Made by a program: the position numbers and the translations under genes
Assembly (NCBI RefSeq): GCF_020735385.1
Contig: NZ_CP085953.1
Location: 682,001 to 746,000 of the forward strand
From: Granulicatella elegans
GTDB taxonomy: Bacteria > Bacillota > Bacilli > Lactobacillales > Aerococcaceae
DNA length: 64,000 nucleotides
Direction: 5' to 3'
The notes under the pieces: model-generated
Databases searched by the model: none
What the model was told of the DNA's origin: nothing
What the model saw: only the letters and a program-made list of their open reading frames with translations
Part shown: positions 10,114 through 55,550 of the stretch, piece by piece
Layout: each line of letters opens with the position of its first letter
How positions within the stretch are numbered: the first letter of the stretch is position 1

Positions 10114-10159
10114 GGTTAAAAAACTATTAGGTTTATAGAAAGAAAGGTTGTAAAAAACA

Positions 10160-10663
10160 ATGGAAGTAAATCATAAGACTTTTGGTAAAATAAAATTTAA
10201 TTACGGTTGGACAAAAGATATTTCTCTAGATATTTTCAATAAGCACCATGTTTTGGAAATCAATATTGATGCGGATGAAGATGCTGAATTTGAAATTAAT
10301 TAGGAAAAAGCTTATATATTTTTCAATAATCACTTAGATGAAATAGTAAAAGAGGCAGATTCTGCAATTATATCATATTACAATCGTGAAATATCAGATC
10401 TTGTTTCAAGCTACACGAATAATAACGAAAAAAAATATTTTTTAGATATAATTGGAGACAAAGATAAAATTTATTCTTTGTTGCAACCCAAACAAATCAT
10501 GTTTCCTTTAACTTTTGATGAAAATATTGAAGAGTTTGGTTTTTTATGTGAGTGTGATTGGGATAAAGAAAATGGCATAGGAATAAAATTTGTTAATGGT
10601 GTATTGTCTGAAATTGGTTATCAGGATATACTCCTAACAGTTAGACAATCTTCGACCATCTAA
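10160..10663 (+). pseudogene. DUF6985-type protein with an internal stop
   Basis: From the ATG at 10160 (after AGAAAGG) a single frame runs to 10663, interrupted only by TAG at 10301-10303 after 47 codons. The sequence before (FGKIKFNYGW, INIDADEDAEF) and after (FGFLCECDWDKENGIGIKF, LSEIGYQDI) fits the DUF6985 family. That family is often found beside polymorphic toxin genes and is suspected to be immunity-like; the assignment is from memory of the pattern. Its 3' end runs into the toxin fragment that begins at 10638 in another frame, which marks a recombination joint. Confidence 0.6.
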
Positions 10664-11282
10664 TTCGGCAGATGCTCTAAGCGATGGTTTGCGCCATGCA
10701 GATAATGTTTTAAGTGAAGCCGCACAGAACTTCCGTCTGAATATTGGGCTGGAGCCTCAACTAGCAGATGGTGTTCTATCAAGTGGTGGAGGAAAGTTAT
10801 CTCATCTAGCAGATAATCTCAGTGCTTTCGCGAAGAATCTAGATGGTAGTGTGGATGAAGTTGGGAAACTAAAACCGAATGTCAAATATCAAACAGGCGA
10901 ATTTGAATATCTCTATCAAACAGATGGTCTAGGACGCTTGACAGATTGGAATGCATCAGAACTTCAATTGACAGAACGAAATGGCCGACTTCCTCACGAT
11001 TCTAGCACTCCAGGTAAGTTACCGGGTGACCATGCAGGTCACTTGGCAGGAGATTGGTTTGGTGGTTCTCCGGAGATTGATAATTTGGTTTCACAGTTGA
11101 GCGATGTGAACTTGAGTGATTATAAAAAATTGGAAAATCAATGGGCCAAAGCTTTGGAAGAAGGTAAGGATGTTTCAGTCAATGTCAAAGTGAATTATAT
11201 TGGCGATAGTCTGAAGCCGGATAGTTTTGATGTGAGGTACACAATTGAGGGTTTTCCATTTAGCAGAAGAATAAAAAATTAG
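10638..11282 (+). pseudogene. Orphan LXG toxin tip: DNA/RNA non-specific endonuclease (NS_2 type)
   Basis: An open frame without a proper start (first possible TTG at 10689) carries the C-terminal end of a type VII secreted toxin. Residues before ~10865 match the linker of LXG toxins (LRHADNVLSEAAQNF, then KLSHLADNLSAFAKNL). The remainder is an Endonuclea_NS_2 nuclease domain: YLYQTDGLGRLTDW, GDHAGHLAGDWFGGSPEIDN with the catalytic-type DHAGH, and a final beta sheet. B. subtilis YeeF carries the same kind of domain. The LXG secretion domain is missing, so the tip cannot be exported as it stands. It could be a donor for recombination into an intact toxin gene. Confidence 0.75.
10782..10863 (+). 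repeat. LXG linker repeat, copy 1
   Basis: About 80 bases encoding GGGKLSHLADNLSAFAKNL-DGSVDEV. Near-identical DNA occurs at 12848-12920 and 13995-14069, each time directly before a different toxin tip. This is a ready-made region for homologous exchange. Confidence 0.85.
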
Positions 11283-11291
11283 AGGTGAAAA

Positions 11292-11744
11292 ATGATTTTT
11301 GAAGATAAGTTATCAGAAATTCAAACAGATATGATTAGTTTAGCTCTTGAACTAGCAGAAGATAAAATTGATACTGCATATATATACGGTTCTTACGAGA
11401 ATAATTCCTTATCTTTTAACAGTTTTTTTGCTCAAGATAACAAAGTATATACGATAAATAAACTAGACCAGCTTGGTATAGAAAATTTAACAAAAGATAG
11501 AATGTTTCAATATTTAGAAATTGGAATAAGTGACTTAGAGCGATTTATAACATTATTTCAAGAGGATAAAAAACAAGCCCCAACTCAACTGAAATTGGTA
11601 TATGATAATGTGAATAAAAAAGCTAATGCTAAATATTCTTATGAAATTTTTTATTCAAATTCTGACTCACTAACTCCTGAAGATATTTTCATGGAATGGT
11701 ACAATGAAGTGAAGGAAGAAGTTGAAGGGCATCATGATATTTGA
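11292..11744 (+). CDS. YezG/DUF600-family immunity protein
   Basis: A 150-residue cytoplasmic protein resembling the YezG (DUF600) family, which neutralises the YeeF-type nuclease in Bacillus. Features are the N-terminal helix EIQTDMISLALELAED, a central beta sheet (IYGSYENNSLSF, KVYTINKL) and a late YEIFYSNSDSLTPEDIF region. It starts 9 bases after the NS_2 nuclease tip with AGAGGTGAAA as ribosome site, the expected toxin-then-immunity order. The frame is intact, so it may still protect against sibling-delivered nuclease even though the adjacent toxin is headless. Family call is by pattern; specificity is inferred. Confidence 0.7.
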   Translation: MIFEDKLSEIQTDMISLALELAEDKIDTAYIYGSYENNSLSFNSFFAQDNKVYTINKLDQLGIENLTKDRMFQYLEIGISDLERFITLFQEDKKQAPTQLKLVYDNVNKKANAKYSYEIFYSNSDSLTPEDIFMEWYNEVKEEVEGHHDI

Positions 11745-11766
11745 AGATGAATTTTCAGCTATAATG
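11734..11766 (+). pseudogene. 5' stub of a second YezG-like immunity gene
   Basis: Overlapping the end of the immunity gene in another frame, an ATG opens MIFEDEFSAIM, a near copy of the start of the 11292 gene (MIFEDKLSEIQ). After 11 codons it dissolves into the next toxin tip. It records a lost duplicate and a recombination joint. Confidence 0.5.
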
Positions 11767-12206
11767 AACCGGAGTTTGCACGTCAGCTCACTGATCAGGA
11801 AAAAGGCATGAACGAGCTTACCGTTAAAGAGTATCTTGATAATCGCGAACGATATATTGCCGAAGGTCGAGCGATTGAAGGAAATGCGGCACAGAAAGCG
11901 GCTAGGGAAACAGCTTTAGAAGAAAAAATAGAAGAGTTGGTTAATAAAGGTATAGATATTGATGTTGCTGAGGAACAAGCCCAAAAATGGATGGATACTC
12001 AAGCAGCTCTTCATAATCCAGACCAGATAGCTGGAGGTTATGCCGATCAGATTGGCGGAATGGGGGATAAGAGAATTAATTCTTCCATCGGTTCTCAATG
12101 GAAATATCGGATTGATGCCGTAGATGAGCAGATACAAGCCTTGGTTGAGAAGATGACACCAGAGCAATTACAAACTACCTATCTAAATGTTCGCTTAACT
12201 TATTAA
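11763..12206 (+). pseudogene. Orphan toxin tip: Ntox15 (Tde1-like) DNase domain
   Basis: The frame is open from about 11760 (first ATG 11808) and encodes the C-terminal domain of a polymorphic toxin of type 15. Landmarks are EFARQLTDQEKGMNEL, a helical stretch, then HNPDQIAGG carrying the HxxD motif required for DNase activity in Agrobacterium Tde1, and GDKRINSSIGSQWKYRID, which is highly typical of Ntox15. No linker or export domain precedes it. A matching immunity gene follows 13 bases later. Activity of the domain alone is plausible but not shown. Confidence 0.72.
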
Positions 12207-12219
12207 ACAAGGAGTCTAT

Positions 12220-12759
12220 ATGTTAAAAGATTTTACAAGAGTGGCAGCCATGCCTCAAGAAGTGATTGAAAAGTACAAGAATCAAATTCCGTCAGAGCTG
12301 GTTCAAATCTGGGAAGAAGATGGTTTGGGAACCTTTTTAGACGGTTATCTGAAAGTGATTAATCCGGATGAATATCTTGAACTGGTTCAGGAGACCTATT
12401 TCAGAGGGGATATTTCCATTCCCATTTTTGCGACAGCTTTTGGGGATATTATTACTTGGGAGAAGAACGAATTTTTGGGGATTATTAAATATAAAGATGG
12501 TACATTTGATATTTTTTTAGAAAATTTATCGCTTTTTATCAAATTTTTACCTGATGAAAGTTTTACAGATGATTATTTTAACCTACCGCTTTATCATAAG
12601 GCGATAGAGAAATATGGCTCGCTTGATTATACACAGTGTTTTGGTTTTGTGCCACTTTTGGTTTTAGGTGGCTTTAAAGACGTGAATCATCTGGATAAGG
12701 TAAAAATGTACGAACATATTTTACTGATTACTCAATTGGCTGGTCCTATCGGAGATTAA
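12220..12759 (+). CDS. GAD-like/Tdi1-type immunity protein
   Basis: A 179-residue protein with a GAD-like N-terminal part (residues ~15-100, including IPSELVQIWEEDGLGTF and ITWEKNEFLGIIKYKDG) and a C-terminal DUF1851/Tdi1 region (YHKAIEKYGSLDYTQCFGFVPLLVLGG). In Agrobacterium, Tdi1 is the immunity partner of the Ntox15 DNase Tde1. Finding it immediately after an Ntox15 tip strongly supports a cognate pair moved into a type VII setting. The start at 12220 has AAGGAG upstream. The frame is intact. Confidence 0.75.
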   Translation: MLKDFTRVAAMPQEVIEKYKNQIPSELVQIWEEDGLGTFLDGYLKVINPDEYLELVQETYFRGDISIPIFATAFGDIITWEKNEFLGIIKYKDGTFDIFLENLSLFIKFLPDESFTDDYFNLPLYHKAIEKYGSLDYTQCFGFVPLLVLGGFKDVNHLDKVKMYEHILLITQLAGPIGD

Positions 12760-12823
12760 AGAGGTCATAGTTTTGATAATCTAATCAAAAGCAACTTAGT
12801 ATCACTATCGAGAACCTGGCTTA

Positions 12824-13467
12824 ATGCAACTAGTAGATAGTAGTAGCTGGAAGTTATCTCATTTAGCAGATAATCTCAGCGCTTTCGCGAAGAATCTAGA
12901 TGGTAGTGTGGATGATGTTGTGGAAGCCAACCGGTTCTCCTTAGAGTGGCATAATTTGCAGAAAAGTTTTCCGGATTCAGGATTATCAGAACGACAATCA
13001 GAAAAGATAGTCAATATTAAACCAAGTGAAACAATTAAACGACCAGATCCGGAGCAATATTTGAGTTCTAATTATATTAAAGAACATAATGCCTTATTTG
13101 ACGAAGGGGTGCCAGCTTTTGCTAAAAATGATTATTGGATTCAAAAAGAAGGTTATTTTGGTCGACCGGATGGGCATTTGTCTTTCCAAAAGATGTAGCT
13201 GAAGCTATGGTCAAGGGAGCTGATGGTGATCCCCATGTACTTGAAAAACTTTTTGGACTTGATAAAGGTAGTCTTGGAAATAATCCAATTATGATCGAAC
13301 CTAAGGAAGTTGAAAATCTGAGGATTCCAAGTGGCAATGAGGGCGGAGCAAGCGGGAATGTTCAATGGCGTCCGGGTGGTAAGACCTATCCGGGCGGTGT
13401 TCCAGAATCTGTGATTGACAGAGTTCCTAAAGATAAATTGAACATTAAAGAATTGTGGAGTGAATAA
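12824..13467 (+). pseudogene. Orphan LXG toxin tip of unrecognised type, frameshifted
   Basis: The ATG at 12824 leads into linker copy 2 and then a tip beginning NIKPSETIKRPDPEQYL. At 13177-13179 three Ts occur where four would keep the frame: adding one gives YFGRPDGHFVFPKDVAEAM and joins cleanly to the downstream frame. That frame ends with LRIPSGNEGGAS, a glycine-rich GGKTYPGGVPESVIDRVP and a stop at 13467. Similar GNEAGAN/GGKTxGG endings occur in other polymorphic toxins, but I do not know the enzymatic activity. The 13470 gene is the likely immunity partner. Confidence 0.62.
12848..12920 (+). repeat. LXG linker repeat, copy 2
   Basis: Encodes WKLSHLADNLSAFAKNL-DGSVDDV, almost identical in DNA to the copies at 10782 and 13995. 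Confidence 0.85.
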
Positions 13468-13469
13468 TA

Positions 13470-13829
13470 ATGAAAGAAATACCAACAAAAAAAGGTGATA
13501 TGTTAGAAATTTATGAAGCCAATGGTAAGTATATTTTAAAGTATCCAACTTTCAATATCACCATGCCAGAGGTTGTTAAAGAAATCTCTAAAGAAGCAGT
13601 GGATAGCTATTTAGCAGGAAAACATGATGGTGAAGAATTAATTAATTATGCTAATTTCGGATTTTGGAAATCAAAAATTAGTCAAGAAGATGCTAATATA
13701 CAATTTTTAAGAGATAATCCAGAATTTCTTCTTATTGATACAGATAGAAAGAGACACTATTTCTCCGAAAAAGAATTTGAAGAATTGTTGAAAAAAGCTC
13801 ATGAAGTTTCTGATGCAGACGATAAGTAA
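13470..13829 (+). CDS. Putative immunity protein for the preceding tip
   Basis: A 119-residue acidic soluble protein that I do not recognise. It starts two bases after the stop of the frameshifted tip, the tight spacing seen for toxin-immunity pairs. It has no signal peptide or membrane segment, as expected for a cytosolic antidote. Visible features are the beta-rich start IYEANGKYILKYPTFNITMPEV and the helical end EKEFEELLKKAHEVSDADDK. The frame is intact. Function is inferred from position only. Confidence 0.55.
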   Translation: MKEIPTKKGDMLEIYEANGKYILKYPTFNITMPEVVKEISKEAVDSYLAGKHDGEELINYANFGFWKSKISQEDANIQFLRDNPEFLLIDTDRKRHYFSEKEFEELLKKAHEVSDADDK

Positions 13830-13919
13830 TCATTCCCTACATTAAAGAATATAAGAGGCAGAGTTCTTGCTTTGTCTCTTACGTATTATAAGAAAATTCT
13901 TAGGCAGTAGGCTCAGACC

Positions 13920-14560
13920 ATCATCCGTTGCACGCTATGAGGCTGGTCTTTTTGATGAGAATGCCCGTCTAGTCTATGGAAGCCAGAAGAGAGCGGTGGG
14001 AAGTCATCTCATTTAGCAGACAATCTCAGTGCTTTCGCGAGGAATCTCGATGATAGTGTAGATGATCTTTCAGAAAACATAGTTAAGTTTTTTGAAAAGC
14101 CTCTTTCTACTATGGACAGATTTAATGAGATAGATATTGTTAGTTATAAGGAAACTATGAAAAAAATTATACAGAAATTGATGTTGCTAAATTAACTGAT
14201 TTAACAACACACAATACAGAATCAAATACCGCCTTACTTGGTTATTTTCAACCTAATAGTGTAACTTCTTATGAGCAAGTGGCTCATGCTAATGGCTGGA
14301 CTTATTTTGATGCTTGAAATGATGGATGGAATGCAATGTGGAAAGTGGATCCAGACTTAGCTTATAAAGTAAATGATGAATTCTTGCTAAAACAGATTCA
14401 GGAAGGAAAGAATTTTATATTGAGTTCCAATCCAGAAGCTGCAGATTTTGTATTTCATACGACTGGTAAAGGGGAATCATTTATGAATGAAATGAATATT
14501 CTAAGAGAAAATGAATATAAGTTTGAGAATTTTGGAAATATGTGGAGGGCTTATAAATGA
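13920..14560 (+). pseudogene. Orphan LXG toxin tip, badly decayed
   Basis: Starting around 13920 a remnant reads SVARYEAGLFDENARLVYG, then after a small shift linker copy 3. The tip follows (LSENIVKFFEKPLSTMDRF), loses frame near 14165-14190, continues as LLGYFQPNSVTSYEQVAHANG and is cut by TGA at 14318-14320. The last stretch, from 14336, reads MWKVDPDLAYKVNDEFLL through NFGNMWRAYK. At least one frameshift and one stop make it non-functional. I do not recognise the enzyme class. The gene at 14557 overlaps its end by four bases and is the likely immunity partner. Confidence 0.55.
13995..14069 (+). repeat. LXG linker repeat, copy 3
   Basis: Encodes GGKSSHLADNLSAFARNL-DDSVDDL. It is the most diverged of the three copies and the only one in a heavily damaged frame. 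Confidence 0.8.
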
Positions 14561-14958
14561 GCGAAGTATACTTGCCTACAAGAGATAGTTTAGGTTATCA
14601 GAATGTCAAACAAGCTTTAGAGAAAATTTTTTCGATTAATCTTGATACAATTACGATTAATGAAGGAGAAGATGAAAATTTTAATTTTCCGTTCATGTAT
14701 AACGGTTATCATATGACAATAGGTATTTCGTCAACCGGTAAAAATACGCAATTGGAAGCAGGAGAGGGTGGCTTGTTTAACATTTGGTTCACTCAAACTG
14801 ATGAACAGAGATTTTCAATCACCTTTTTATCCAAGATTATTGATGATAAGAGTATAAAAAGAGTGTATGGCCGTGATGAAGAATCAGTCGAACAAACTTT
14901 GAATATATTGAAAGACTTTCTAAATTCAGATAAAGCGGAAGTTCTATTGAAGAATTGA
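14557..14958 (+). CDS. Putative immunity protein for the decayed tip
   Basis: A 133-residue soluble protein of unknown family. ATGA overlap with the stop of the preceding tip argues for a translationally coupled toxin-immunity pair. The sequence is alpha/beta, with FNFPFMYNGYHMTIGIS and FNIWFTQTDEQRFSITFLS as likely strands and a helical C-terminus. No signal peptide. Intact frame beside a ruined toxin, a pattern repeated across this cluster. The role is inferred. Confidence 0.55.
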   Translation: MSEVYLPTRDSLGYQNVKQALEKIFSINLDTITINEGEDENFNFPFMYNGYHMTIGISSTGKNTQLEAGEGGLFNIWFTQTDEQRFSITFLSKIIDDKSIKRVYGRDEESVEQTLNILKDFLNSDKAEVLLKN

Positions 14959-14962
14959 ATCC

Positions 14963-15349
14963 ATGTCTAAATTTTGTCATGGGAGTGGTGGATCTAAAAA
15001 AATCGTCATGAATCCTGATGAACTACAGGCAATCATGCGTTACATCACCACAGTTAAGGTTTCATTTCAAAATAATTTGGCTCCAAAATTGAAGAGCCTA
15101 TCTGAAACAAAATATTATGAAGGTGGAGAAGCCTCGAAAGCAATGGATCACTATTCTAAAATGCTCAACAAAGTGAATGAAGTTGGAGATTTATATCAGC
15201 GAGCCAATAGTGAAATTTTAAGTATGATGGGACAGTGGCTCCAACAAGATGCTCAGTTGAGAGATGATTTTCTAAATGGTCTTTCTTCTAATCCTACTCT
15301 AGTAAAAAATTTAGAAACTCTGGGAATGATTCCGCGAGGTGACCAATGA
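14963..15349 (+). CDS. LXG-partner small helical protein (Lap-like, type VII secretion)
   Basis: A 128-residue, mainly helical protein. Two long helices flank a turn, with YYEGGEASKAMDHYSKML in the middle, and the size fits the WXG100-like proteins encoded before LXG toxins (Lap1/Lap2 class), which bind the LXG domain and present it to the type VII secretion machine. Only five bases separate it from the preceding gene, and its stop overlaps the start of the next gene in ATGA. In intact loci the order is lap genes, LXG toxin, immunity; here the toxin body is missing downstream. Assignment rests on size, helicity and context. Confidence 0.6.
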   Translation: MSKFCHGSGGSKKIVMNPDELQAIMRYITTVKVSFQNNLAPKLKSLSETKYYEGGEASKAMDHYSKMLNKVNEVGDLYQRANSEILSMMGQWLQQDAQLRDDFLNGLSSNPTLVKNLETLGMIPRGDQ

Positions 15350-15729
15350 CCAAAGACGTAGAACTTCATTCATCGACCTGGAAGACGATGCAATAAGCCC
15401 TGACAGGCTTCACTGAAAATTCCACAATCTCAAGCAGTGGCTATGGGAATTACACCAATGTTCAAGCAGGAGCCTATAGTACTGGAACAGCTTCAACCGG
15501 ATTTGACAAGCGAGTAGAAGAGCTGGTTAAAATTTCTGAGAAGGTTCGGCGCTTGATAGCAGAAAAGGATACGGACGGTGCTGTGTCCTATAGCTATTAT
15601 GATGACACAAGTATCGGACAAACTCTGCAATCCAAGCCCTCAAAGACATTCCCTAACTTGAATCGAGTAACAGTGACTTCTTTCTCTCCCATTTCATTCT
15701 CAGATGGAGAAAAACTCAACTCATTTTGA
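15346..15729 (+). pseudogene. Second LXG-partner protein with nonsense codon
   Basis: The ATG at 15346 overlaps the previous stop (ATGA). The frame reads MTKDVELHSSTWKTMQ, then TAA at codon 17, then remains open for 110 more codons: ALTGFTENSTIS, GFDKRVEELVKISEKVRRLIAEKD, ending FSDGEKLNSF and TGA at 15729. A single substitution would repair it. The helical DKRVEELVKISEKV segment and position fit a T7SS LXG accessory protein. The cluster breaks off here, facing an opposite-strand gene. Confidence 0.58.
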
Positions 15730-15764
15730 TTAGCGGAAATCTTAGTTTTCACTTGGTAAGGAAC

Positions 15765-17528
15765 TCAAATCTTCAGAGCTTTAGAACCCTTTTTAACTGT
15801 TCTTTCAAAATCCGTTTTCCATTTATTAAAACTTGCAACACGGGAAACATTAGGATTTTGCATCTTCAGCAAATGAATATTGTTGAGTGAGTAGTTGTGA
15901 AACTTACTCATCGTATCCAAGAACGATTTAAACTGTTCTGAATCTAAATAGTTCTTCATTCCCTCTTTCAAGTGTTCAGCTAAAGCTTTTGTATCTTTAT
16001 TTGCGACTAACTGGGAAATAGTTTGTTCTGAACTTTTAGTAGCAATTGCATTGGTTATAATAGCTCCAGTTTCAGCTTCAACATCTGTCCTTCTTTCTCT
16101 ATCTTCCTGTTTTTTATGAAGGTTAGAGGCACTGTTGTATGGATCTGTTCCCTGCAACATCTCATCAGAATTGGAAATACCATCACTATCCAAATCACGA
16201 TCTCTCTCAACTTTTCGGTTATACTGATAAATTTTTTCGTATGGATTATCTAGTGTATTTTGTGAATTCTTGACTTGTGTTTTTTCAAATTTATCTAGAA
16301 CGTTGACAATGGTTTGTTCAACTTTTTCCGATAATTCTTTAATTTCATTTTGCCATTTTTCTACAAGAGCTACTTGTTCTTGAGGCGAATCTCTAACTCC
16401 CAACTTCTCAAACCAAGCAGATAAATTGTCTACCTCAACACTATCCATTCCATCAAAAGAGATAAAGCCAAGACGACTATCATGACTACTATCCGAAAAA
16501 CCAATCGGACTATTTTCTAACACTCCATAAGGTACTTGGGATAAAAGTTGATCGGCATAAGGAGTATCTTTCAAAGCGTAACTGAACTGAGAAATATCTA
16601 GTTCACTCGCTAATCTCTCCAGATGATACTGATTAAATAATGCCCCATCTAGCTTTATCAGCTCTGGATGCTCTCTCATTTCTCGTGTACCAAGTCTTTC
16701 TTTATGAGCGATTGGATTAATCTCCTCACCAATATTGTAACGGATGCTATCCTGAATCAGTTCACCTTCAGGACTGTATAAGTCAAATTGAACCTTTGTA
16801 AAAGGGGTATAGGAAGCACCTTCTACCTGGTTCATTCGATCACTTACACTTGCATGATGCTTTTCGTAATAGATATTATTCTGCTTATATAGCTCTGTTG
16901 CAAAAGACTGATAATCAACCAACTCTGTTTCGCTAAAAGGTAAAATTGGCCCACCATCATGCTTTTCTGCCCATTGAAGGCGGACATTGTAGTTATTTTT
17001 GTCAATCTCATTTGGTTGAATTGCCTCAAACAAGCCGTTTTCCATAATGGATTGCAATTCTTTGCCCCCATCTTTAATATAGTCCTCATTGATTGATAGC
17101 TGTTCAATGTGGCCATTACGTTCATGGAAGATACCAAGAATAACTTTTCCATCGGTTTTCTCCACATCAACTTTTAAATCTTTCTTAATTTTGATAAGAG
17201 ATGCAGGGACACGTTCTTCTCCTATATCTTTGAAAAGAAGTAGGAAGTCTTCATCTTTACTCTTAATAGCTTCTGAAAAATTAAGCCGTTGTGCTATTCT
17301 TACCTCATCTAAGTTATCCAATACAAACGATTTAGAATCAAGAATATCCTCCAACATGGGAATGACTTGTAATTTTTCTTTTAGACTATTACTAACCATT
17401 ATTTGGTTATAGTTTCCTCTTCCTTCTTCAAAATCAACTACAAAATCTGAAGCTTTTTTCCCTTCCACAATAGGTCTGATTCCTGTTAAGTGTAAAAAGT
17501 TTTCTTGTTTAAAACTAACATCTAACAA
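15765..17528 (-). CDS. Large polyvalent protein fragment: PBECR4-like N-terminus, ArdC-like C-terminus (truncated both ends)
   Basis: The frame encodes 587 residues of a mobile-element protein. The N-terminus (SFKQENFLHLTGIRP) matches PBECR4-type nuclease-fold domains. A middle section resembles large polyvalent protein-associated domains (DYQSFATELYKQN). Near residue 445 a calcium-type repeat DRDLDSDGISNSDEM occurs. The end, FHNYSLNNIHLLKMQNPN through KKGSKALKI, is the beginning of an ArdC-like ssDNA-binding domain, cut after ~45 residues. Upstream the frame stays open for another ~20 codons without ATG, back to TAG near 17590, so the TTG at 17528 is only a nominal start. It looks like debris of a conjugative element that replaced the LXG toxin body. 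Confidence 0.65.
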   Translation of the reverse strand: MLDVSFKQENFLHLTGIRPIVEGKKASDFVVDFEEGRGNYNQIMVSNSLKEKLQVIPMLEDILDSKSFVLDNLDEVRIAQRLNFSEAIKSKDEDFLLLFKDIGEERVPASLIKIKKDLKVDVEKTDGKVILGIFHERNGHIEQLSINEDYIKDGGKELQSIMENGLFEAIQPNEIDKNNYNVRLQWAEKHDGGPILPFSETELVDYQSFATELYKQNNIYYEKHHASVSDRMNQVEGASYTPFTKVQFDLYSPEGELIQDSIRYNIGEEINPIAHKERLGTREMREHPELIKLDGALFNQYHLERLASELDISQFSYALKDTPYADQLLSQVPYGVLENSPIGFSDSSHDSRLGFISFDGMDSVEVDNLSAWFEKLGVRDSPQEQVALVEKWQNEIKELSEKVEQTIVNVLDKFEKTQVKNSQNTLDNPYEKIYQYNRKVERDRDLDSDGISNSDEMLQGTDPYNSASNLHKKQEDRERRTDVEAETGAIITNAIATKSSEQTISQLVANKDTKALAEHLKEGMKNYLDSEQFKSFLDTMSKFHNYSLNNIHLLKMQNPNVSRVASFNKWKTDFERTVKKGSKALKI

Positions 17529-17646
17529 ATTTACTTTTCCATTATTTGAGTAGAAATAATAGACTTTACTATTTGCTAACTCTTCTAAATACTATTGAGA
17601 AAAAACACGTTTAGTCTTGAATCGTTAATTCTTTGTGGCTTACCTG

Positions 17647-44337: not shown

Positions 44338-45462
44338 GTGCCAGCATACAGAGATGAAAGTGGAAATAAAACTTGGTATTGCAGGTTTTATTATACCAAC
44401 TGGAAAGGAGAAAAATTAACTAAGAAAAAACGCGGATTTTTAACAAAAAAAGAAGCATTAAAATGGGAAAAAGAATTTTTAAATCAACATTCTGAATCAA
44501 TTGAGATGAGCTTTAGGGAGTTTTTTGAACTTTACAAGAGGGATAGAAAACCAAGAATAAGAGAAAATACTTGGAGGACAAAAGAATCAATTGTAAATCA
44601 AAAAATACTTCCCTATATTGGTGATTTAATGCTTAATGAGATTAATAATGTAACCATCATTCAATGGCAAAATGAGCTTATGAAGATTAAGGATAAGAAT
44701 GGAAAAAACTACTCTCCTACTTATTTGAGAACTATTCATGCCCAGTTATCCAGTATCTTAAATCATGCTTGTAGGTACTACAATTTAAAAACTAATGTTG
44801 CTCGTGATGTTGGTTCTATGGGTGAAAAAGAAGCTGACGAAATGCTATTTTGGACTCAAGATGAATATGAAAGATTTATAGAAGCTATTAAAGATAAACC
44901 TGAGTCATTCTATGCTTTTGAACTTTTGTATTGGTGTGGTCTTAGAATGGGAGAATTATTAGCTTTAACACAAGAGAAATTTGATTTTGAAAGGCATACA
45001 TTAAAAATTGATGAATCTTTACAAAGGATTGATGGGAAAAATGTAATAACAGCCCCTAAGACTAAAAAAAGCATTAGGACAATAGTTATGCCTGAATTTT
45101 TAACGGATGAGATTAAAGAGTATATAGACAGCTTTTATAAGTTAAAACCAAAAGACTTAATATTTAATTTTTCTAAGAGCTACCTCCACCATGAAATGGA
45201 TAGGGGATCTAAGAAATCCCAAGTGAAGAGAATTAGAATACATGATTTAAGGCATTCTCATGTTTCACTCTTAATTGAACTAGGATTTTCTGCAACTGCA
45301 ATAGCTGATAGGGTTGGACACGAATCGATTGATATCACCTATAGATACGCTCATCTCTTCCCTAGTAAGCAAAAAGAAATGGCTCTGTCTTTAACGCAAG
45401 TAAGAAATAATAAGGCAAATGATTGGAAAGATTTATTAGAAGAGGATGATAAAGATGTTTAG
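44338..45462 (+). CDS. int: Tyrosine recombinase/integrase of the element
   Basis: A 374-residue phage/Tn916-type integrase, starting with GTG. The N-terminal arm-binding domain (residues ~8-55) is followed by a SAM-like core-binding domain. Catalytic residues are Arg in YWCGLRMGELLAL, HDLRHSH (His, Arg) and the GHESIDITYRYAHL region with its Tyr nucleophile. It lies near guaA reading inward, and should catalyse integration at the guaA 3' end. Intact. Confidence 0.92.
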   Translation: MPAYRDESGNKTWYCRFYYTNWKGEKLTKKKRGFLTKKEALKWEKEFLNQHSESIEMSFREFFELYKRDRKPRIRENTWRTKESIVNQKILPYIGDLMLNEINNVTIIQWQNELMKIKDKNGKNYSPTYLRTIHAQLSSILNHACRYYNLKTNVARDVGSMGEKEADEMLFWTQDEYERFIEAIKDKPESFYAFELLYWCGLRMGELLALTQEKFDFERHTLKIDESLQRIDGKNVITAPKTKKSIRTIVMPEFLTDEIKEYIDSFYKLKPKDLIFNFSKSYLHHEMDRGSKKSQVKRIRIHDLRHSHVSLLIELGFSATAIADRVGHESIDITYRYAHLFPSKQKEMALSLTQVRNNKANDWKDLLEEDDKDV

Positions 45463-45817
45463 AAGACATTCATTAGATGAAATTTCTAAAAAAACGAGAA
45501 ATAAAGACAAAAATAGAAAAAGAAATCGAATTTTAAACTTTAGAGTATCTGAAGAAGAATATGATCTAATAAACAAAAAGATAGAAATAAGTGGACTTAA
45601 AAAACAAGATTATTTTCTACAAATGTTATTAAATCATGAAGTTAAGTTAGTAAGTGATTACAGACTTTCTGATAATATAGCCAAGGAAATATTTCAACTA
45701 GCAAAAGCTATTAAAAAGTTTGGAAAACTAGATGACGATGAAGCTGATATTTTAATCTATATTTTAGAAATATATGAAAAAATCAAAAAAGAAAAAAGCC
45801 CCTACTACAAAGAGTAA
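45455..45817 (+). CDS. MobC/ribbon-helix-helix-like mobilisation accessory protein
   Basis: A 120-residue basic protein. The start NRILNFRVSEEEYDLINKKI and the following GLKKQDYFLQMLL resemble the ribbon-helix-helix region of plasmid mobilisation proteins (MobC-type), with an acidic helical C-terminus. The start at 45455 overlaps the integrase stop by eight bases; an ATG at 45446 is an alternative. A second, different MobC-like gene exists at 49336. Confidence 0.6.
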   Translation: MFRRHSLDEISKKTRNKDKNRKRNRILNFRVSEEEYDLINKKIEISGLKKQDYFLQMLLNHEVKLVSDYRLSDNIAKEIFQLAKAIKKFGKLDDDEADILIYILEIYEKIKKEKSPYYKE

Positions 45818-45825
45818 AGGCATAC

Positions 45826-45873
45826 ACTCCTGTGAGAAGTGTTCTCTAGACAAGTTCATTTTACCACAGGAGT
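45826..45873 (+). other. RNA hairpin between mobilisation and VapE genes
   Basis: ACTCCTGTG and CACAGGAGT form a 9-bp stem around a 30-base loop that holds AGA-AGTGTT-CTCT. It is followed by CTTATTT. It could be a weak terminator or attenuator; the right arm contains CAGGAGT, so the stem could also hide ribosome-site-like sequence. Confidence 0.5.
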
Positions 45874-45900
45874 CTTATTTATACCAGACAGGAGGATAAA

Positions 45901-45978
45901 ATGGAGAATAAATATAAAGCAATAAAGAGATTAGATGGTTGTAAAAAGAAGAGGAGTAAGGCTTATGACAGATATTAA
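45901..45978 (+). CDS. Small basic 25-residue ORF overlapping vapE
   Basis: MENKYKAIKRLDGCKKKRSK and five more residues, starting from an ATG with a strong CAGGAGG five bases upstream. It ends inside the start of the VapE-type gene (45965), so its translation would couple to that gene. Highly basic. It is either a leader peptide or a small nucleic-acid-binding protein. Confidence 0.45.
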   Translation: MENKYKAIKRLDGCKKKRSKAYDRY

Positions 45979-47416
45979 ATTAAAATTCCCAGAAATAGAT
46001 CAGACTTACGCCTTTTTAGACTTACAAACTACGGATAAGGGGACGGTTAGACAAATTACTGGAAATATTGTAACAGCTATTTTAAATCCCAAATATTGTC
46101 AAAACCAAAAAATCATTGATGGACAAATATTCTTTGATAAATTTACCAATGAAATAAAATTCCAGGGGAAAATTATCGGAGAAAGAAATATAAAGGAAAA
46201 TCAAATACGACTTTGGGATGATTCTTTAAATAATAGACTAGGCTTAGAGATAGAAAAACATTTTGGAATTAATTATAACGCCAATAAAATGTGGGAAGCT
46301 ATTCGTTTTGTAGCTCATCAATACGAAGTGAGTCCGCCAAAGCAATATCTTCAAAATTTAAAATGGAATGGAGATAAAAATGCCATTAGAAAACTTTTAC
46401 CAAGGTATTTGGGAGCGGATGATACAGATCTTAATAATTGGATAATGGAACATATGATATTGGGTATGATAAAAAGAATTTTCAATCCAGGTTCTAAGTT
46501 TGATGAGATGATTGTTTTAGTTGGTGGGCAAGGTATAGGCAAATCTACTTTTGCAAGATACTTGTCCATAACAGATGATTGGTTTTGTACAATAGAAAAC
46601 ATTCAAGGCAAGGATGCTGTCATGAACCTTATGGGAAAAACTGTTGTTGAGATCGAAGAATTTGTTGCTTTAAGAAATGCAAAATCGGCTAATGAAGCTA
46701 AATCTTTTTTATCAAAATTAAGTGATAGGATAAGAATACCCTACGAAAAATATGCAACAGATGTGCCTAGAACTTGTATCTTTATAGGTACATTAAACGA
46801 AAGAACTTTTCTTAATGATCATACTGGAGAACGAAGATATTTACCTGTTGAATGTAACCCGAATAAAAGAATAAGGACTATATATCCTGATAAAAATAAT
46901 AAAGAAAAACTTTCAGACAAAGAATATATATCTAGTATAAGAGAAGATTTTAATCAGGCTCTAGCCTTGGGATATGAAATCTTTAAAAACAAGACTCATG
47001 CATGGACTATACCAAAAAATCTATTAGAAGACTTGTATAAGGAGCAAGAAAAGTTTAAATATCTAAACCCAGATGTGGAAGACATTAGGTATTTCTTAGA
47101 AGAATATAAGCCAAAGAGTGCAGATCCTAATATAACTTGTTTCAAAGAACTAACCATGCAAGGCTACCAAATAAAATCAAAATCTTTTTCAGAGATTATG
47201 GATAATTATTTCCAAGAATGGATTCCAGTTAGGTCATCAAAGACCCAGAGAATATCACCAAGTGGAGTCTCAATTCCAGTAAAACTATATTATGAAAAGA
47301 AAGAAGAAAATGAAACTGATTTTATAGAAGTTGATAAGAAGTTTTTGCCAGAAGAATGGCAAAAAGAAAATCAATTAGAAATAGATACAGCAAATCAAGT
47401 AAAGATACAAATGTAA
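45965..47416 (+). CDS. VapE/primase-helicase type ATPase
   Basis: A 483-residue virulence-associated E family protein. The Walker A loop GGQGIGKSTFAR, an acidic Walker B stretch VVEIEEFVAL, and an arginine-containing FIGTLNERTFLNDHTGERRYLPVE are typical of D5/VapE P-loop ATPases that support replication of phage-like islands and integrative elements. The ATG at 45965 has AGGAG eight bases upstream and is preferred over an in-frame ATG at 45935. The downstream DNA is interrupted by an IS150-like element before the second mob pair. Confidence 0.82.
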   Translation: MTDIKLKFPEIDQTYAFLDLQTTDKGTVRQITGNIVTAILNPKYCQNQKIIDGQIFFDKFTNEIKFQGKIIGERNIKENQIRLWDDSLNNRLGLEIEKHFGINYNANKMWEAIRFVAHQYEVSPPKQYLQNLKWNGDKNAIRKLLPRYLGADDTDLNNWIMEHMILGMIKRIFNPGSKFDEMIVLVGGQGIGKSTFARYLSITDDWFCTIENIQGKDAVMNLMGKTVVEIEEFVALRNAKSANEAKSFLSKLSDRIRIPYEKYATDVPRTCIFIGTLNERTFLNDHTGERRYLPVECNPNKRIRTIYPDKNNKEKLSDKEYISSIREDFNQALALGYEIFKNKTHAWTIPKNLLEDLYKEQEKFKYLNPDVEDIRYFLEEYKPKSADPNITCFKELTMQGYQIKSKSFSEIMDNYFQEWIPVRSSKTQRISPSGVSIPVKLYYEKKEENETDFIEVDKKFLPEEWQKENQLEIDTANQVKIQM

Positions 47417-47581
47417 CTTTGTAACCTGTAACCCATCGTTATAAATCTTCTTAAATTAGGATTACATAAATTAATGGCTTGATAATAAAGGGTTGACACA
47501 GACTCTTAAAACAAGCTCACCTAATTTGTACTGCACCCCAAAAGTTAGACATGAAAAATCTAACTTTTGGGGTGTTTTTTA

Positions 47582-48097
47582 ATGAAATTAACTTATGAAG
47601 ATAAAATAGAAATTTATCAACTAAGAAAACAAGGTGAAAGTTTAAAGAATCTTTCAAAGAAATACGATATTGCCGATTCTAATATTAAATACTTAGTTCG
47701 ATTGATTGATCAATATGGAATAGAAATTGTTAAAAAAGAAAAAAATCGTTACTATTCACCAAAACTAAAGCAGGAAATAATGAATAAAGTTCTTTTAGAA
47801 GGTCGTTCACAAACAAGTGTGGCTATTGATTATGCACTTCCTAATCGTTCCCTACTTTCAAATTGGCTAGCACAATATAAGAAAAATGGGTATACTATTG
47901 TTGAGAAAACAAGAGGGAGACCAAATTCAATGGGACGTAAGCCAAAGAAAAAATTAGAAGAAATGACAGAATTAGAACATCTTGAATTAGAAAATCTATA
48001 CTTAAAGGCGGAAATTGCTGTTCTAAAAAAGTTGAGGGAACTACGATTGAAGGAGGAAAAAGAGAAAGAAGAAAAACTGAAATTGTTCAAGAATTAA
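47582..48097 (+). CDS. IS150-type transposase OrfA
   Basis: A 171-residue DNA-binding protein with two helix-turn-helix units ([20 protein letters not shown], and [20 protein letters not shown] for the second) and a C-terminal leucine-zipper-like helix. The frame ends at 48097. A slippery A AAA AAG at 48025-48031 lets a fraction of ribosomes shift -1 into orfB and make the OrfAB transposase. The ATG at 47582 is preferred. Confidence 0.9.
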
Positions 48098-48111
48098 TCA
48101 ATGAATTTCCA

Positions 48112-48945
48112 TTGGATATTCTTCTTAAAGTAATTAATTTAGCTCGTTCAACGTACTATTACCATTTAAAACAAATGAACCAACCGGATAAGGATCAACA
48201 GCTTAAAGATGAAATACAAGATATTTTTACAGAACATAAGGAAAACTATGGTTACCGTAGAATTCATTTAGAATTAAGAAATCGTGGCTTTAAAGTGAAT
48301 CATAAGAAGGTACAACGCTTAATGAAAGCACTTGGTTTAATTGCCCGTATTCGTCGTAAACGCAAATATTATTCATACCAAGGAGATGTTGGAAAGAAAT
48401 CAGATAATCTGATTCAACGTGATTTTGAAGGATCTAAACCAATGGAAAAATGTTACACAGATGTAACGGAGTTTGCCATTCCAAGTAGTGAACAGAAACT
48501 ATATTTATCACCAGTCTTAGATGGATTTAACAGTGAAATTATTGCGTTCAATCTTTCTCGTTCACCTAACTTACATCAACTAAAGGCAATGTTAAACGAG
48601 GCATTTACAGATGAAAAATACAAAAATACTATTCTCCACAGTGACCAAGGTTGGCAATACCAGCATGATTCTTATCATCGATTTTTAGAAAGTAAAGATA
48701 TAAAGCCGTCTATGTCACGTAAGGGGAACAGTGCAGATAATGGTATGATGGAATCTTTCTTTGGTATTTTGAAATCAGAAATGTTTTATGGATTTGAAAA
48801 AGAATTTAAGTCTCTTGAGGAATTAGAGAAAGCTATTATCGATTATATTGATTATTACAACAACAAACGTATAAAAATTAAACTGGATGGACTAAGTCCT
48901 GTAAATTACAGAATAACTCATTCAAACTCTGCTCGTATTGCTTAA
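48112..48945 (+). CDS. IS150-type transposase OrfB (DDE catalytic part)
   Basis: A 277-residue retroviral-integrase-like catalytic subunit. The DDE triad is in YTDVTEFAI, LHSDQGWQYQ and ESFFGILKSEMF. The TTG at 48112 is nominal: the frame is open back to the A6G site at 48025-48031, so the main product is probably the OrfAB fusion made by -1 frameshifting. No damage seen. Confidence 0.92.
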   Translation: MDILLKVINLARSTYYYHLKQMNQPDKDQQLKDEIQDIFTEHKENYGYRRIHLELRNRGFKVNHKKVQRLMKALGLIARIRRKRKYYSYQGDVGKKSDNLIQRDFEGSKPMEKCYTDVTEFAIPSSEQKLYLSPVLDGFNSEIIAFNLSRSPNLHQLKAMLNEAFTDEKYKNTILHSDQGWQYQHDSYHRFLESKDIKPSMSRKGNSADNGMMESFFGILKSEMFYGFEKEFKSLEELEKAIIDYIDYYNNKRIKIKLDGLSPVNYRITHSNSARIA

Positions 48946-48989
48946 CTAGTAAATCTAATTGAAAGTTTAATAATATTTCCAAGAAAAAA

Positions 48990-49076
48990 CGCGCCAAAAA
49001 TTTTGGCGCGAACCCCCTAGGGGGTTATTCATACATTTTGTTTTATTAATCAAAAAGAGACGACTTAAGTCGTCTC
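48990..49076. terminator. Three consecutive palindromes in the IS150-like element's 3' tail
   Basis: CGCGCCAAAAATTTTGGCGCG (48990-49010), AACCCCCTAGGGGGTT (49011-49026, perfect) and the perfect 20-bp GAGACGACTTAAGTCGTCTC (49057-49076) lie between orfB and the right end. The last is flanked by A-runs on both sides. They could insulate the transposase from outside transcription. Confidence 0.7.
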
Positions 49077-49208
49077 AAAAAAGTCTAACTTTTTGGGGTC
49101 ACTTCAATTTTGGAAGTTTTTATTTTATAAGTTACAGTTACACTTATTAATTCCTATTTGAAAAAATATTAAAAATAAATTTTAGACTTGTTAATAATAG
49201 CAAGCACA

Positions 49209-49310
49209 GTAAGTGTACGGACACTTACGAAAAATTTAATGGAGCAGCCCTTTACGGAATGCTCCATTTTTTTAATTTTTACCTTGTTAGGGAGAACCCT
49301 AAGACCCCGA
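49209..49310 (+). other. Candidate oriT of the mobilisation module
   Basis: Just upstream of mobC and the relaxase are two clean inverted repeats: GTAAGTGT-ACGG-ACACTTAC (49209-49228) and TTAGGG-AGAA-CCCTAA (49287-49302) followed by GACCCCG, with a terminator between. Position and layout fit an origin of transfer with nicking near the second hairpin. Inferred. Confidence 0.45.
49238..49273 (+). terminator. Terminator upstream of the mob operon
   Basis: AATGGAGC pairs with GCTCCATT, followed by TTTTTT. It would stop readthrough from the left. Confidence 0.8.
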
Positions 49311-49335
49311 AATAAGTTTTATAAAGGAGAATAAA

Positions 49336-49692
49336 ATGGCAAATAGATTTAGAAATGAAAGAATAGAAATAAAATTAACTAAGGAAGAAAAGGAAGTTTT
49401 TGAAAATAAAATGAAACTTGCAAACTGCAAAACTATGTCCCACTTTCTTAGGAAATGTGTATTAGAAAAAGAAATTTATGTAGTGGATTTAGAACCATTC
49501 AGAAACCTACAATGGCTACTTTCAAATGCAACAAATAATATAAACCAGATTGCAAAAGCGACTAATACAACTGGTGTTATTTACAAAAATGAAATTGAAT
49601 CAATGAATAAGCAGATAGAAAAATTATCTAAAGAAATATGGCAGATCCATTCCCTACTTCTTAATAAATCAAAAGAAAGTTCTGGTGATTAG
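49336..49692 (+). CDS. mobC: MobC-like relaxosome accessory protein
   Basis: A 118-residue basic protein. It starts RFRNERIEIKLTKEEKEVFE, a ribbon-helix-helix style region, and has the MobC hallmark ATNNINQIAKATN in the middle with a coiled-coil end. It would bind oriT and help the relaxase nick. AAAGGAG precedes the ATG. Its end meets the relaxase start, with two bases between stop and ATG, so the two are coupled. Confidence 0.8.
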   Translation: MANRFRNERIEIKLTKEEKEVFENKMKLANCKTMSHFLRKCVLEKEIYVVDLEPFRNLQWLLSNATNNINQIAKATNTTGVIYKNEIESMNKQIEKLSKEIWQIHSLLLNKSKESSGD

Positions 49693-49693
49693 T

Positions 49694-51025
49694 ATGGCAA
49701 TTACAAAAATACATCCTATAAAATCAACTCTAAATTTGGCAATAGACTATATAACTAAGAGTGAAAAAACTGATGAAAAAATCTTGGTATCTTCATTCAA
49801 ATGTCATCCATCTACTGCCCATATTCAATTTATGAAAACACGAGAAGATAATGATACTAAAGGTACAGTTTTGGCTAGACATTTAATTCAATCTTTTCTA
49901 CCAGGAGAGGTTGATCCTATAAAAGCTCACGAAATTGGAATGGAATTATGTAAGAAAATTTTAAAAGAAAATTATGAATTTGTTCTTGCAACTCATATAG
50001 ATAGAGGGCATATCCATAACCATATTATTTTTAATAATGTTAATTACAAGACTGGCAAATGCTACCAATCTAACAAAAAATCTTACCACAAAATCAGGTA
50101 TCAAAGTGATGAATTATGTAAAGCAAATAAGCTTTCAGTCATTGATAAATACTATGAAGCTTACAAGAGAAAATATAAAACTGCTGGTAAATCTTGGTAC
50201 GAATATGACCAAAACAAGAAAGGAAATTCTTGGAAGTCTAAACTGCAATTTGATATAGATAGAGTGATTAATAAGTCTAAATCATGGGAAGAATTTTTAG
50301 AAAATATGAAATCTCTTGATTATGAAATTAAGTTTGGTAAACACATTGCTTTTCGTCATAAAGATAAGAAAAGATTTACAAGAGCTAAGACTATCGGAGA
50401 AGATTATACTGAAGAAAAGATCAAAGAAAGAATAGATTTAGCTATAATAAATAAAGCTAATCCTATTAAAAAACGAGTAGGAAATGTTATTGATATATCT
50501 ACTAATGAAAAAGCACAATCCTCTAAAGGTTACGAAGTCTGGGCAAGAAAACACAATATCAAAACAATGGCAGATTCAATAATTAAATTAAGAGAACAAG
50601 GCATTAATTCCATTACCCAGCTCGATGATCTGATCAAAAAATCTGCTGATGATAGACAAGACTTATTAGATAAAATAAAAAAATTTGAAACTGAGATGAA
50701 GAGTTTATCCAAAGATATGGAAAATATTTATACTATAAATAAGTATCGTGAAATATATAAATACCACAAGAAAAATCCTGAAGATAAGCAATTTGAAGAG
50801 GAGTATTATAGCGAACTTTCCGTCTATAAAATAGCCGCTAAAGAAATCTTAGAAAATTATAATAAGCTACCAAATACAAAAGAAATACTATCCAAGCTCG
50901 ATAAACTGCAAGAAAAAAAGAACACCCTTATGCAAGAGTATTCTTTGAATAAAGAACAATTTTCTGACCTTGTTCAGTATAGAAAAAACTATGAAAATTA
51001 TTATGGAAAGGAAGTGGAGAGATAG
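49694..51025 (+). CDS. MobA/VirD2-like relaxase
   Basis: A 443-residue relaxase of the PF03432 type. The three-histidine metal site is in ATHIDRGHIHNHIIFNNV, with a Tyr in the first ~20 residues (NLAIDYITKSEK) as the likely nucleophile. The C-terminal half is a Lys/Glu-rich coiled coil. The ATG at 49694 is chosen; the upstream GTG at 49685 overlaps mobC. It would nick the adjacent oriT candidate and travel with the strand, using the transfer machinery of another element, possibly the Tn916-like module next door. Confidence 0.85.
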   Translation: MAITKIHPIKSTLNLAIDYITKSEKTDEKILVSSFKCHPSTAHIQFMKTREDNDTKGTVLARHLIQSFLPGEVDPIKAHEIGMELCKKILKENYEFVLATHIDRGHIHNHIIFNNVNYKTGKCYQSNKKSYHKIRYQSDELCKANKLSVIDKYYEAYKRKYKTAGKSWYEYDQNKKGNSWKSKLQFDIDRVINKSKSWEEFLENMKSLDYEIKFGKHIAFRHKDKKRFTRAKTIGEDYTEEKIKERIDLAIINKANPIKKRVGNVIDISTNEKAQSSKGYEVWARKHNIKTMADSIIKLREQGINSITQLDDLIKKSADDRQDLLDKIKKFETEMKSLSKDMENIYTINKYREIYKYHKKNPEDKQFEEEYYSELSVYKIAAKEILENYNKLPNTKEILSKLDKLQEKKNTLMQEYSLNKEQFSDLVQYRKNYENYYGKEVER

Positions 51026-51059
51026 AAAGCTATAAGTGGATAAACTTATAGCTTTTTTA
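51026..51059 (+). terminator. Terminator of the mob operon
   Basis: AAAGCTATAAGT and ACTTATAGCTTT form a perfect 12-bp stem followed by TTTT, right after the relaxase stop. Confidence 0.88.
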
Positions 51060-51099
51060 AAATTATTTACAAATTTTTATTCTAAACTTATTATCTTAC

Positions 51100-51366
51100 T
51101 TAAAGAGATCCTACTAGATGACCTGCAAACATTGCTATAGGAAGTAATAAGATTAACAGAATATTCAATACTATGAACAACTTATTCTTTTCCTTTATCC
51201 CAAATATTAAACCTATTAGTCCAATAATTGGGCAGACAAACATTGATGTCAGTCCAGTTGGTCTTAAACTTGTATAGCTTTCAAAGATGTCTATAGGCAG
51301 TAGGTAGGAAATCACAAAAATCGTGAGTCCGAATAGAAATATCTTCTTGCTTAAATTTTCTTTCAT
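51100..51366 (-). CDS. Small membrane protein (copy A of a duplicated gene)
   Basis: An 88-residue protein with three membrane helices (LFGLTIFVISYLLPI, MFVCPIIGLIGLIFGI and LFIVLNILLILLLPIAMFAG). I do not recognise a function; similar small proteins accompany ABC transporters of the FtsX/lantibiotic type. A decayed second copy lies at 52080-52323. It starts 14 bases after the chimeric ABC gene. Confidence 0.6.
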   Translation of the reverse strand: MKENLSKKIFLFGLTIFVISYLLPIDIFESYTSLRPTGLTSMFVCPIIGLIGLIFGIKEKNKLFIVLNILLILLLPIAMFAGHLVGSL

Positions 51367-51379
51367 AAAACCTCCTCTA

Positions 51380-52030: not shown

Positions 52031-52079
52031 TTTTTTCCTCCAACATTACTATATAATCTAAACTCCTAACTTGATTAAA

Positions 52080-52323: not shown

Positions 52324-52369
52324 TTCACTTAATTTTAGATATTGAATATTTTTATCTCAAATTATTTCA

Positions 52370-53963: not shown

Positions 53964-54017
53964 TAAATTTATTCTCCTTATTTATATACAAATCTTAGAA
54001 TACTTAATAAGTATAAG

Positions 54018-55109: not shown

Positions 55110-55124
55110 AGAAAGAGAGGAAAA

Positions 55125-55511: not shown

Positions 55512-55550
55512 CCACGTATCTTCCATTAGAGAGAAAGGAGAAAATCAAAC

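What the first reader, a model, noticed from the sequence alone, without database searches (positions are those of the whole stretch)
10638..14958. Array of headless type VII (LXG) toxin tips with immunity genes, joined by a shared recombination linker
Four different toxin C-termini (NS_2 nuclease, Ntox15 DNase, two unrecognised) are lined up without any LXG export domain, and each is followed by its own immunity gene. Three tips start with almost the same ~75-bp linker encoding KLSHLADNLSAFAKNL (10782, 12848, 13995). This is the expected form of a silent cassette store: recombination at the linker could swap a tip onto an active LXG gene, while immunity genes stay intact even where tips have decayed. 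It parallels orphan Rhs/CDI tips, but in a Gram-positive type VII setting.
Basis: partly seen in the sequence, partly recalled or inferred. Interest (0 to 1): 0.85.

Follow-up and report, generated by a model that had tools for sequence, protein, structure and literature searches.

The report
Stranded type VII toxin tips, immunities
A bacterium in whose genome no type VII secretion system was found carries a decayed piece of a neighbour's type VII weapon locus: headless, partly broken toxin ends beside four intact antidote genes, which may protect it from those neighbours.

Summary
In detail: four headless toxin tips, each followed by an immunity gene, three with a shared linker. In streptococci the linker is the end of a conserved head that precedes the tip in full-length toxins of 572-626 aa, encoded near essC. 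That head matches Pfam PT-TG, marginally, and not LXG; relatives of tip 4 do sit on true LXG heads.

In the window's own genome I found no LXG, WXG100, EssC over cut-off or full-length parent, so a store feeding an active toxin has no acceptor here. Most pieces match different Streptococcus genomes at 90-99% DNA identity; part of Ntox15 and tip 4 reach only about 73%. They look laterally acquired and rearranged. The four adjacent immunity genes are open, but the excess over tips is not significant (P about 0.13).

Comparison supports one tip exchange at a headless linker. Headless islands occur in streptococci with and without EssC. Best reading: a transferred T7SSb effector-immunity island, retained, if at all, for immunity. 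New variant of known orphan-cassette and polyimmunity loci.

The parts
10160..10648 (+). imm0: immunity-like gene, broken by one in-frame stop at 10301
   Evidence: 92.7% DNA to G207 (L085) and 80.1% to G319 (L087), both ending at 10636; 88% protein identity to an open 159-aa gene in G207; stop
10658..10861 (+). linker copy 1, 3' remnant of the conserved head
   Evidence: 85-92% DNA to L006, L007, L008, L080
10862..11282 (+). tip 1, NS_2 nuclease domain, headless, frame open; about 67 bp shorter after the linker than in L008, across an 8-bp repeat
   Evidence: PF13930; 98.7% DNA to L008 over 10854-11759; alignment
11292..11744 (+). imm1, open
   Evidence: 99% protein identity to L008, 100% to G255
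11766..12206 (+). tip 2, Ntox15, no linker; follows a truncated start of an imm1 paralogue
   Evidence: PF15604; homology to L008 ends at 11759; best DNA match of its 5' part about 73% (G159)
12220..12759 (+). imm2, Tdi1/GAD-like, open
   Evidence: PF08906, PF08887; 90% protein identity to G281
12839..12925 (+). linker copy 2
   Evidence: 12839-13902 is 98.8% identical to G180
12926..13467 (+). tip 3, frameshifted
   Evidence: open within a 626-aa headed toxin in G180 and a 291-aa headless frame in G285; frameshift
13470..13829 (+). imm3, open
   Evidence: 98% to G180, 97% to G285
13829..13990 (+). relic shared with the headless island of G285
   Evidence: 94.4% over 162 nt in G285; G180 shares only 13829-13902
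13992..14066 (+). linker copy 3
14067..14559 (+). tip 4, broken (frame change, in-frame stop)
   Evidence: relatives on LXG heads in G089 (74%) and G081 (61%), headless in G089, G144, G334 (61-68%); fragment in G359
14557..14958 (+). imm4, open
   Evidence: 85-87% protein identity to genes in G207, G319, G245
14963..15349 (+). Lap-like partner gene, open
   Evidence: 96% to the gene directly upstream of a headed toxin in G180; low-confidence model resembles LapA3/LapA4 chains of PDB 8gmh, E 0.14
15346..15641 (+). first 99 residues of the toxin head, stop at 15394, cut at 15641
15640..17601 (-). PBECR4/LPD25/ArdcN gene fragment joined to the head fragment; foreign boundary of the array
   Evidence: 90.0% DNA to G219 (L096) from 15640; the frames in G219 and G148 run on past this point; Pfam

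Best explanation
This is a laterally acquired, rearranged and partly decayed piece of a streptococcal type VIIb secretion effector locus. The parent locus lies near essC and holds tandem modules: a Lap-like partner, then a toxin made of a conserved head with a PT-TG region, a linker and a variable tip, then the immunity gene. Recombination and deletion among the repeated heads removed heads and left tips behind with the last part of the head, the linker, attached (inferred). Headless tips could then be exchanged at the linker (one case supported by comparison). The recipient here shows no secretion system, so the tips have no known export route. The only product with an obvious use is the immunity set, which would protect against T7SSb toxins of neighbouring streptococci (inferred).
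For: Complete heads before the linker: 6 of 23 linker copies, all in EssC-positive genomes; toxin genes about 2-18 kb from essC in G076, G079, G080 and G180. Own genome: no LXG, WXG100, EssC over cut-off or full-length parent. Most pieces are 90-99% identical to different Streptococcus genomes, of 284 searched, while 0 of 6 other genomes of the genus have the linker; of 76 family genomes one besides the window's matches, mostly past the linker (query residues 33-64). Runs of immunity genes with imm0, imm2, imm3 or imm4 relatives and no hit to these tips occur in Streptococcus, and 7 of 16 further genomes with array pieces, picked from the 104, lack EssC over cut-off. By eye, imm1-4 each have a Shine-Dalgarno-like sequence and the starts of headless tips 1 and 3 do not. 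Imm1 is 100% identical in protein to G255 although the tip beside it is 82% identical, so immunity genes can move apart from tips.
Against: Selection on immunity in this genome is not shown. Five lesions fall outside imm1-4 and none inside, P 0.13 if uniform, 0.28 if broken imm0 is counted as immunity. dN/dS of imm2 (0.13 against G281) and imm4 (0.14-0.31) mixes donor history with the time since transfer; broken imm0 scores 0.36 and tip 1 0.12-0.40. Promoter-like sites are not in excess. EssC absence in multi-contig genomes may be assembly loss; only G359 and the window's genome are clearly near-complete single contigs. Unrecognised toxins in the immunity arrays are not excluded.
Confidence: 0.68

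Rival explanations
1. Silent cassette store: headless tips are templates that recombine at the linker onto an active secreted toxin, changing its tip and immunity gene together.
For: Same tip3-imm3 pair headed in G180 and headless in G285. The headless linker after imm3 shares its left junction (13829-13990) with G285 but carries tip4-imm4 instead of an NS_2 tip. Tip 4 relatives sit on LXG heads elsewhere, so tips cross head classes. EssC-positive S. suis (G080) holds headed and headless modules in one locus, with one Ntox15 copy of each.
Against: No acceptor or secretion system found in this genome. In G285 the headless island is about 0.93 Mb from essC. Two of four tips here are broken.
Confidence: 0.2
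2. Pure wreckage: a transferred fragment with no present function in tips or immunity genes, on its way to loss.
For: Broken imm0, tip3, tip4 and head fragment; junctions between unrelated pieces; intactness contrast not significant.
Against: Imm1-4 and the partner gene are all open, with Shine-Dalgarno-like sequences for imm1-4; runs of such immunity genes occur in several Streptococcus genomes.
Confidence: 0.27
3. Headless tips are themselves exported effectors, as reported for S. suis MSE-ExTs that lack the YeeF head.
For: Precedent PMC12558993. An imm3 relative in G207 carries DUF6572, the domain that paper calls EIC-CR.
Against: In that paper a full-length EssC was required; this genome has none over cut-off. 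Imm3 here is 119 aa and matches no Pfam family; tips 3 and 4 are broken.
Confidence: 0.03

Closest known systems
Standalone toxin cassettes and polyimmunity loci of polymorphic toxin systems (Zhang et al. 2012, PMC3482391; passages and section 41 read)
   Same: Toxin tips without trafficking domains next to immunity genes; tip replacement by recombination; a median 1:3 ratio of active toxins to cassettes
   Different: Here no active toxin or secretion system was found that could use the cassettes
MSE-ExT headless effectors of S. suis T7SSb (PMC12558993; abstract, passages, sections 19 and 20 and part 1 of the Discussion read)
   Same: T7SSb toxins lacking the N-terminal export domain but sharing a conserved N-terminal marker; several per locus with exchangeable tips; DUF6572 in immunity relatives
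   Different: MSE is about 310 aa and export needed full-length EssC; the linker remnant here is about 25-65 aa in a genome without EssC. Whether MSE is homologous to this head was not tested
Acquired interbacterial defence with orphan Tdi1 in Bacteroidales (PMC10470768; start of abstract in the listing only)
   Same: Orphan immunity for Ntox15 toxins; imm2 here is Tdi1/GAD-like
   Different: That is against T6SS in Bacteroidales; no protection shown here
Truncated LrhA and orphan immunities of Listeria T7SSb (PMC10327511; passages read)
   Same: Headless T7SS toxin copies proposed as templates for toxin diversification; orphan immunity genes
   Different: In T7SSb-positive Listeria; Rhs scaffold
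Truncated WapA duplications of S. suis, likened to Rhs orphans (PMC12704120; passages read)
   Same: Gram-positive headless tip-immunity pairs behind a full-length toxin; the one tested was not delivered
   Different: Sec-exported Rhs/WapA toxins with a full-length gene in the same locus
Orphan Rhs tips of Salmonella (PMC3967940; seen only as a listing and as cited in passages of PMC9484751)
   Same: Headless tip plus immunity that can recombine with a full-length gene
   Different: Full-length acceptor in the same genome

Membership tests
LXG toxins | N-terminal LXG domain PF04740 | tested here: not met
   0 matches in own genome; linker-bearing parents match PT-TG and tip domains only. Tip 4 relatives in G089 and G081 do have LXG heads
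T7SSb polymorphic effectors (broad) | encoded near essC with helical partner genes and immunity | tested here: met
   for the parents, not the window: EssC in 5 of 5 genomes and in G180, toxin genes about 2-18 kb away in G076, G079, G080, G180; partner resembles LapA3/LapA4, weak
T7SSb polymorphic effectors (broad) | export by T7SSb | not testable with these tools
   experiment needed
Orphan toxin cassette array | tips without head, each with its immunity gene | tested here: met
Orphan toxin cassette array | full-length acceptor in the same genome | tested here: not met
   only five fragments of the 608-aa parent; no LXG
Polyimmunity / acquired interbacterial defence | immunity genes kept without cognate headed toxins | tested here: met
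   no headed relative of the parent; imm1-4 open
Polyimmunity / acquired interbacterial defence | immunity genes uninterrupted by toxin cassettes (polyimmunity of PMC3482391) | tested here: not met
   tips still lie between the immunity genes
Polyimmunity / acquired interbacterial defence | protection against incoming toxins | not testable with these tools
   experiment needed
MSE-ExT | about 310-aa MSE sequence | not tested
   sequence not held; linker remnants here are 32-64 residues of my 70-aa query

The most novel reading that the evidence does not exclude
Headless T7SSb tip-immunity islands are a circulating pool shared across streptococci and into another family. They persist and trade tips, even between LXG and non-LXG heads, at short linkers in hosts without any T7SS, so that a T7SS-free host gains updatable immunity to neighbours' T7SS weapons, an acquired-defence counterpart for type VII secretion.
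Probability: 0.3. Interest if true: 0.75.

Novelty: new variant of a known kind. Interest (0 to 1): 0.5.

Why it matters
If the immunity genes work, bacteria with no type VII system collect defences against type VII weapons across family lines, as gut Bacteroidales are reported to do against type VI. The comparative set (same tip with and without head; same headless position with different tips; a tip shared with LXG toxins) gives natural material for asking whether headless tips are dead or a recombination reservoir.

Tried and rejected
LXG identity of the linker's own head: not met by Pfam; own genome has no LXG. T7SS in the own genome: the EssC model gave 3 sub-cut-off hits, of a kind that 9 of 14 control genomes, E. 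coli among them, also show; WXG100 none. EssB, EsaA and other core parts were not searched. Phage or plasmid origin: plasmids no match; viral contigs none; two S. suis phage records carry related sequence at 67%, one examined. Structure of the full-length parent: mean pLDDT 33, discarded. Solved relatives of tip 3: none by sequence, profile hits only at E 0.34 or worse; a NADase identity is unproven. Promoters and terminators: no excess over shuffles. Lesion test: not significant.

Papers: searched for T7SS orphan immunity, headless cassettes and acquired defence; each listing shows only its best entries (5 to 25 of up to 650). In those listings I saw no report of T7SSb immunity islands in genomes lacking T7SS, but most subscription papers are not held.

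Full report
What is there. The region codes on the + strand for four toxin C-termini, each followed by an open immunity frame. Tip 1 is an NS_2 nuclease domain and tip 2 an Ntox15 domain; tips 3 and 4 match no Pfam family. Imm2 is Tdi1/GAD-like. The second and third linker copies are 89% and 77% identical to the first over 87 nt; the Ntox15 tip has none. The array begins earlier than reported, with a broken immunity-like gene (10160-10648). It ends later, with a partner gene and the first 99 residues of a toxin head, cut at 15641 by a foreign PBECR4/ArdC-type gene that is itself cut there: its relatives in G219 and G148 run on past this point. Tip 3 is frameshifted; tip 4 changes frame and has a stop.

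Where the linker comes from. A scan of bacterial genomes found the linker in S. oralis, two Streptococcus sp. records and two S. suis genomes, plus two weak hits (30-32% identity) in one Binatia MAG that I did not follow. In the streptococci the linker is the end of a conserved head that directly precedes the variable tip. Of five full-length proteins aligned, four share head and linker and diverge after it; the fifth has the same head with another linker, as does a 642-aa protein in G180, so this linker is one of at least two types. The head matches PT-TG just over its cut-off, not LXG. The 284 held genomes of the genus of G076 (S. oralis DD15) contain 19 linker matches in 9 genomes. My census on fetched regions counts 23 copies including one extra fragment and three in the window: 6 with a complete head, 14 without one (two of these keep part of it), 3 undecided because of contig edges or gaps. 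All 6 complete heads lie in EssC-positive genomes. The seven copies in the two linker-bearing genomes found without EssC (G359 and the window's) have no complete head. G336 (one fragment) was not tested for EssC.

The link to type VII secretion. EssC passes the cut-off in 5 of 5 first parent genomes. The toxin genes lie about 2-18 kb from it: downstream in the S. suis genomes G079 and G080, upstream in G076 and G180. A related partner gene directly precedes six of the seven complete heads I mapped in G180, G079 and G080 whose upstream was intact enough to read, in full or in part. A model of the window's partner (mean pLDDT 66) is a helical hairpin whose best PDB matches are chains of the TelA-LXG/LapA3/LapA4 complex, weakly (E 0.14, probability 1.0). 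So the family is T7SSb-associated, although its head is not LXG by Pfam.

The window's genome cannot evidently use it. I found no LXG, no WXG100, no EssC over cut-off, and only five fragments of the 608-aa parent. None of 6 other genomes of the genus has the linker. In the family search (76 genomes) one other genome matched, mostly past the linker (query residues 33-64). The streptococcal parents did not appear in that family search, so the host family is not theirs.

Transfer and mosaic origin. A BLAST of 10120-15760 against the 284 genomes found matches in 104, some only to the ArdC end or the Tdi1 gene. The pieces are closest to different genomes: 10132-10636 G207 92.7%, 10854-11759 S. sp. 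oral taxon 058 98.7%, 12115-12794 G281 89.7%, 12839-13902 G180 98.8%, 14514-14958 G101 90.6%, 14985-15641 G180 93.0%, 15640-17601 G219 90.0%. The 5' part of Ntox15 and tip 4 have no close match (at best about 73%).

Evidence for tip exchange. Tip3-imm3 is headed in G180 (626 aa) and headless in G285 (291 aa) and here. Tip1-imm1 follows the linker in L008, but in G255 an upstream stretch with no similarity to head or linker precedes the tip while imm1 is 100% identical in protein. Ntox15-Tdi1 sits on this head in S. suis W153 but on an N-terminus without detectable similarity in G159. Tip 4 relatives sit on LXG heads in G089 (689 aa) and G081 (589 aa) and are headless in G089, G144 and G334; here the tip follows the non-LXG linker. 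After imm3, the window and G285 share a 162-nt relic ending at the linker (94.4%). Beyond the linker G285 has an NS_2 tip while the window has tip4-imm4. G359 also has imm3, linker, NS_2 tip in that order, with a longer remnant, so the window's state looks derived. This is one inferred event, not a rate.

Retention. G207, G281, G319 and G245 carry runs of related immunity genes with no full-length hit to these tips or this head, and in G281 Tdi1 follows only about the last 30 codons of Ntox15; unrecognised toxins there are not excluded. Of 16 further genomes with array pieces, picked by me from the 104, 9 have EssC over cut-off and 7 do not, but most are multi-contig. In the window, five disabling lesions fall outside imm1-4 and none inside (P 0.13), and one of the five is in the fifth immunity gene. 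Pairwise dN/dS is below 0.5 for imm1, imm2 and imm4 where defined, but also for tip 1 and broken imm0; imm3 gives 0.44 against G285 and is undefined against G180; the two halves of broken tip 3 give 0.52 and 0.91; the closest pairs have few changes. Retention for immunity is therefore a plausible inference, not a result.

Comparison with known systems. Standalone cassettes, tip replacement and polyimmunity loci were described in 2012 (PMC3482391). Headless T7SSb effectors that are still exported were reported in S. suis (PMC12558993), and truncated WapA copies there were likened to Rhs orphans (PMC12704120). Truncated T7SS toxins as templates were proposed in Listeria (PMC10327511). Orphan immunity against Ntox15 toxins is reported in Bacteroidales (PMC10470768, start of abstract). 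What differs here is the combination: a T7SSb-derived tip-immunity island in a host of another family where no type VII system was found, and a linker that seems to have served as an exchange point in the headless state.

Noticed in passing
window 15640-17601: Minus-strand PBECR4-LPD25-TSP3-ArdcN gene, cut where the toxin head fragment is cut; related frames in G219 (1007 aa) and G148 (about 1196 aa) run on past the breakpoint.
   Followed up: partly
L085, L086, L088, L089: Longer imm3 relatives (217-225 aa); the one scanned (L085) carries a C-terminal DUF6572 domain, reported in S. suis to bind EssC; the imm3 of the window, G180 and G285 is 119 aa.
   Followed up: partly
L014 8764-12085 (phage YS771): A S. 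suis phage record carries two head-truncated NS_2 tips with an imm1 relative, a few kb from serine recombinase genes: a possible vehicle for such cassettes.
   Followed up: no
L081 9184-10666: In G285 two headless tips lie head to head, with an identical start sequence on both strands.
   Followed up: no
L126 3412-7025: G089 has an LXG toxin ending in a tip 4 relative, followed by a second, headless tip 4 relative, each with an imm4 relative.
   Followed up: partly
L011, L012: Two weak linker-like matches (30-32% identity) in a Candidatus Binatia MAG.
   Followed up: no
window 44338-62887: By the look of the frames (recalled, not searched): a Tn916-like element with IS3-type genes and a group II intron maturase (59554-61464).
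   Followed up: no
window 10854-10861: Eight-base repeat at a loss of about 67 bp between linker and NS_2 tip relative to L008.
   Followed up: yes
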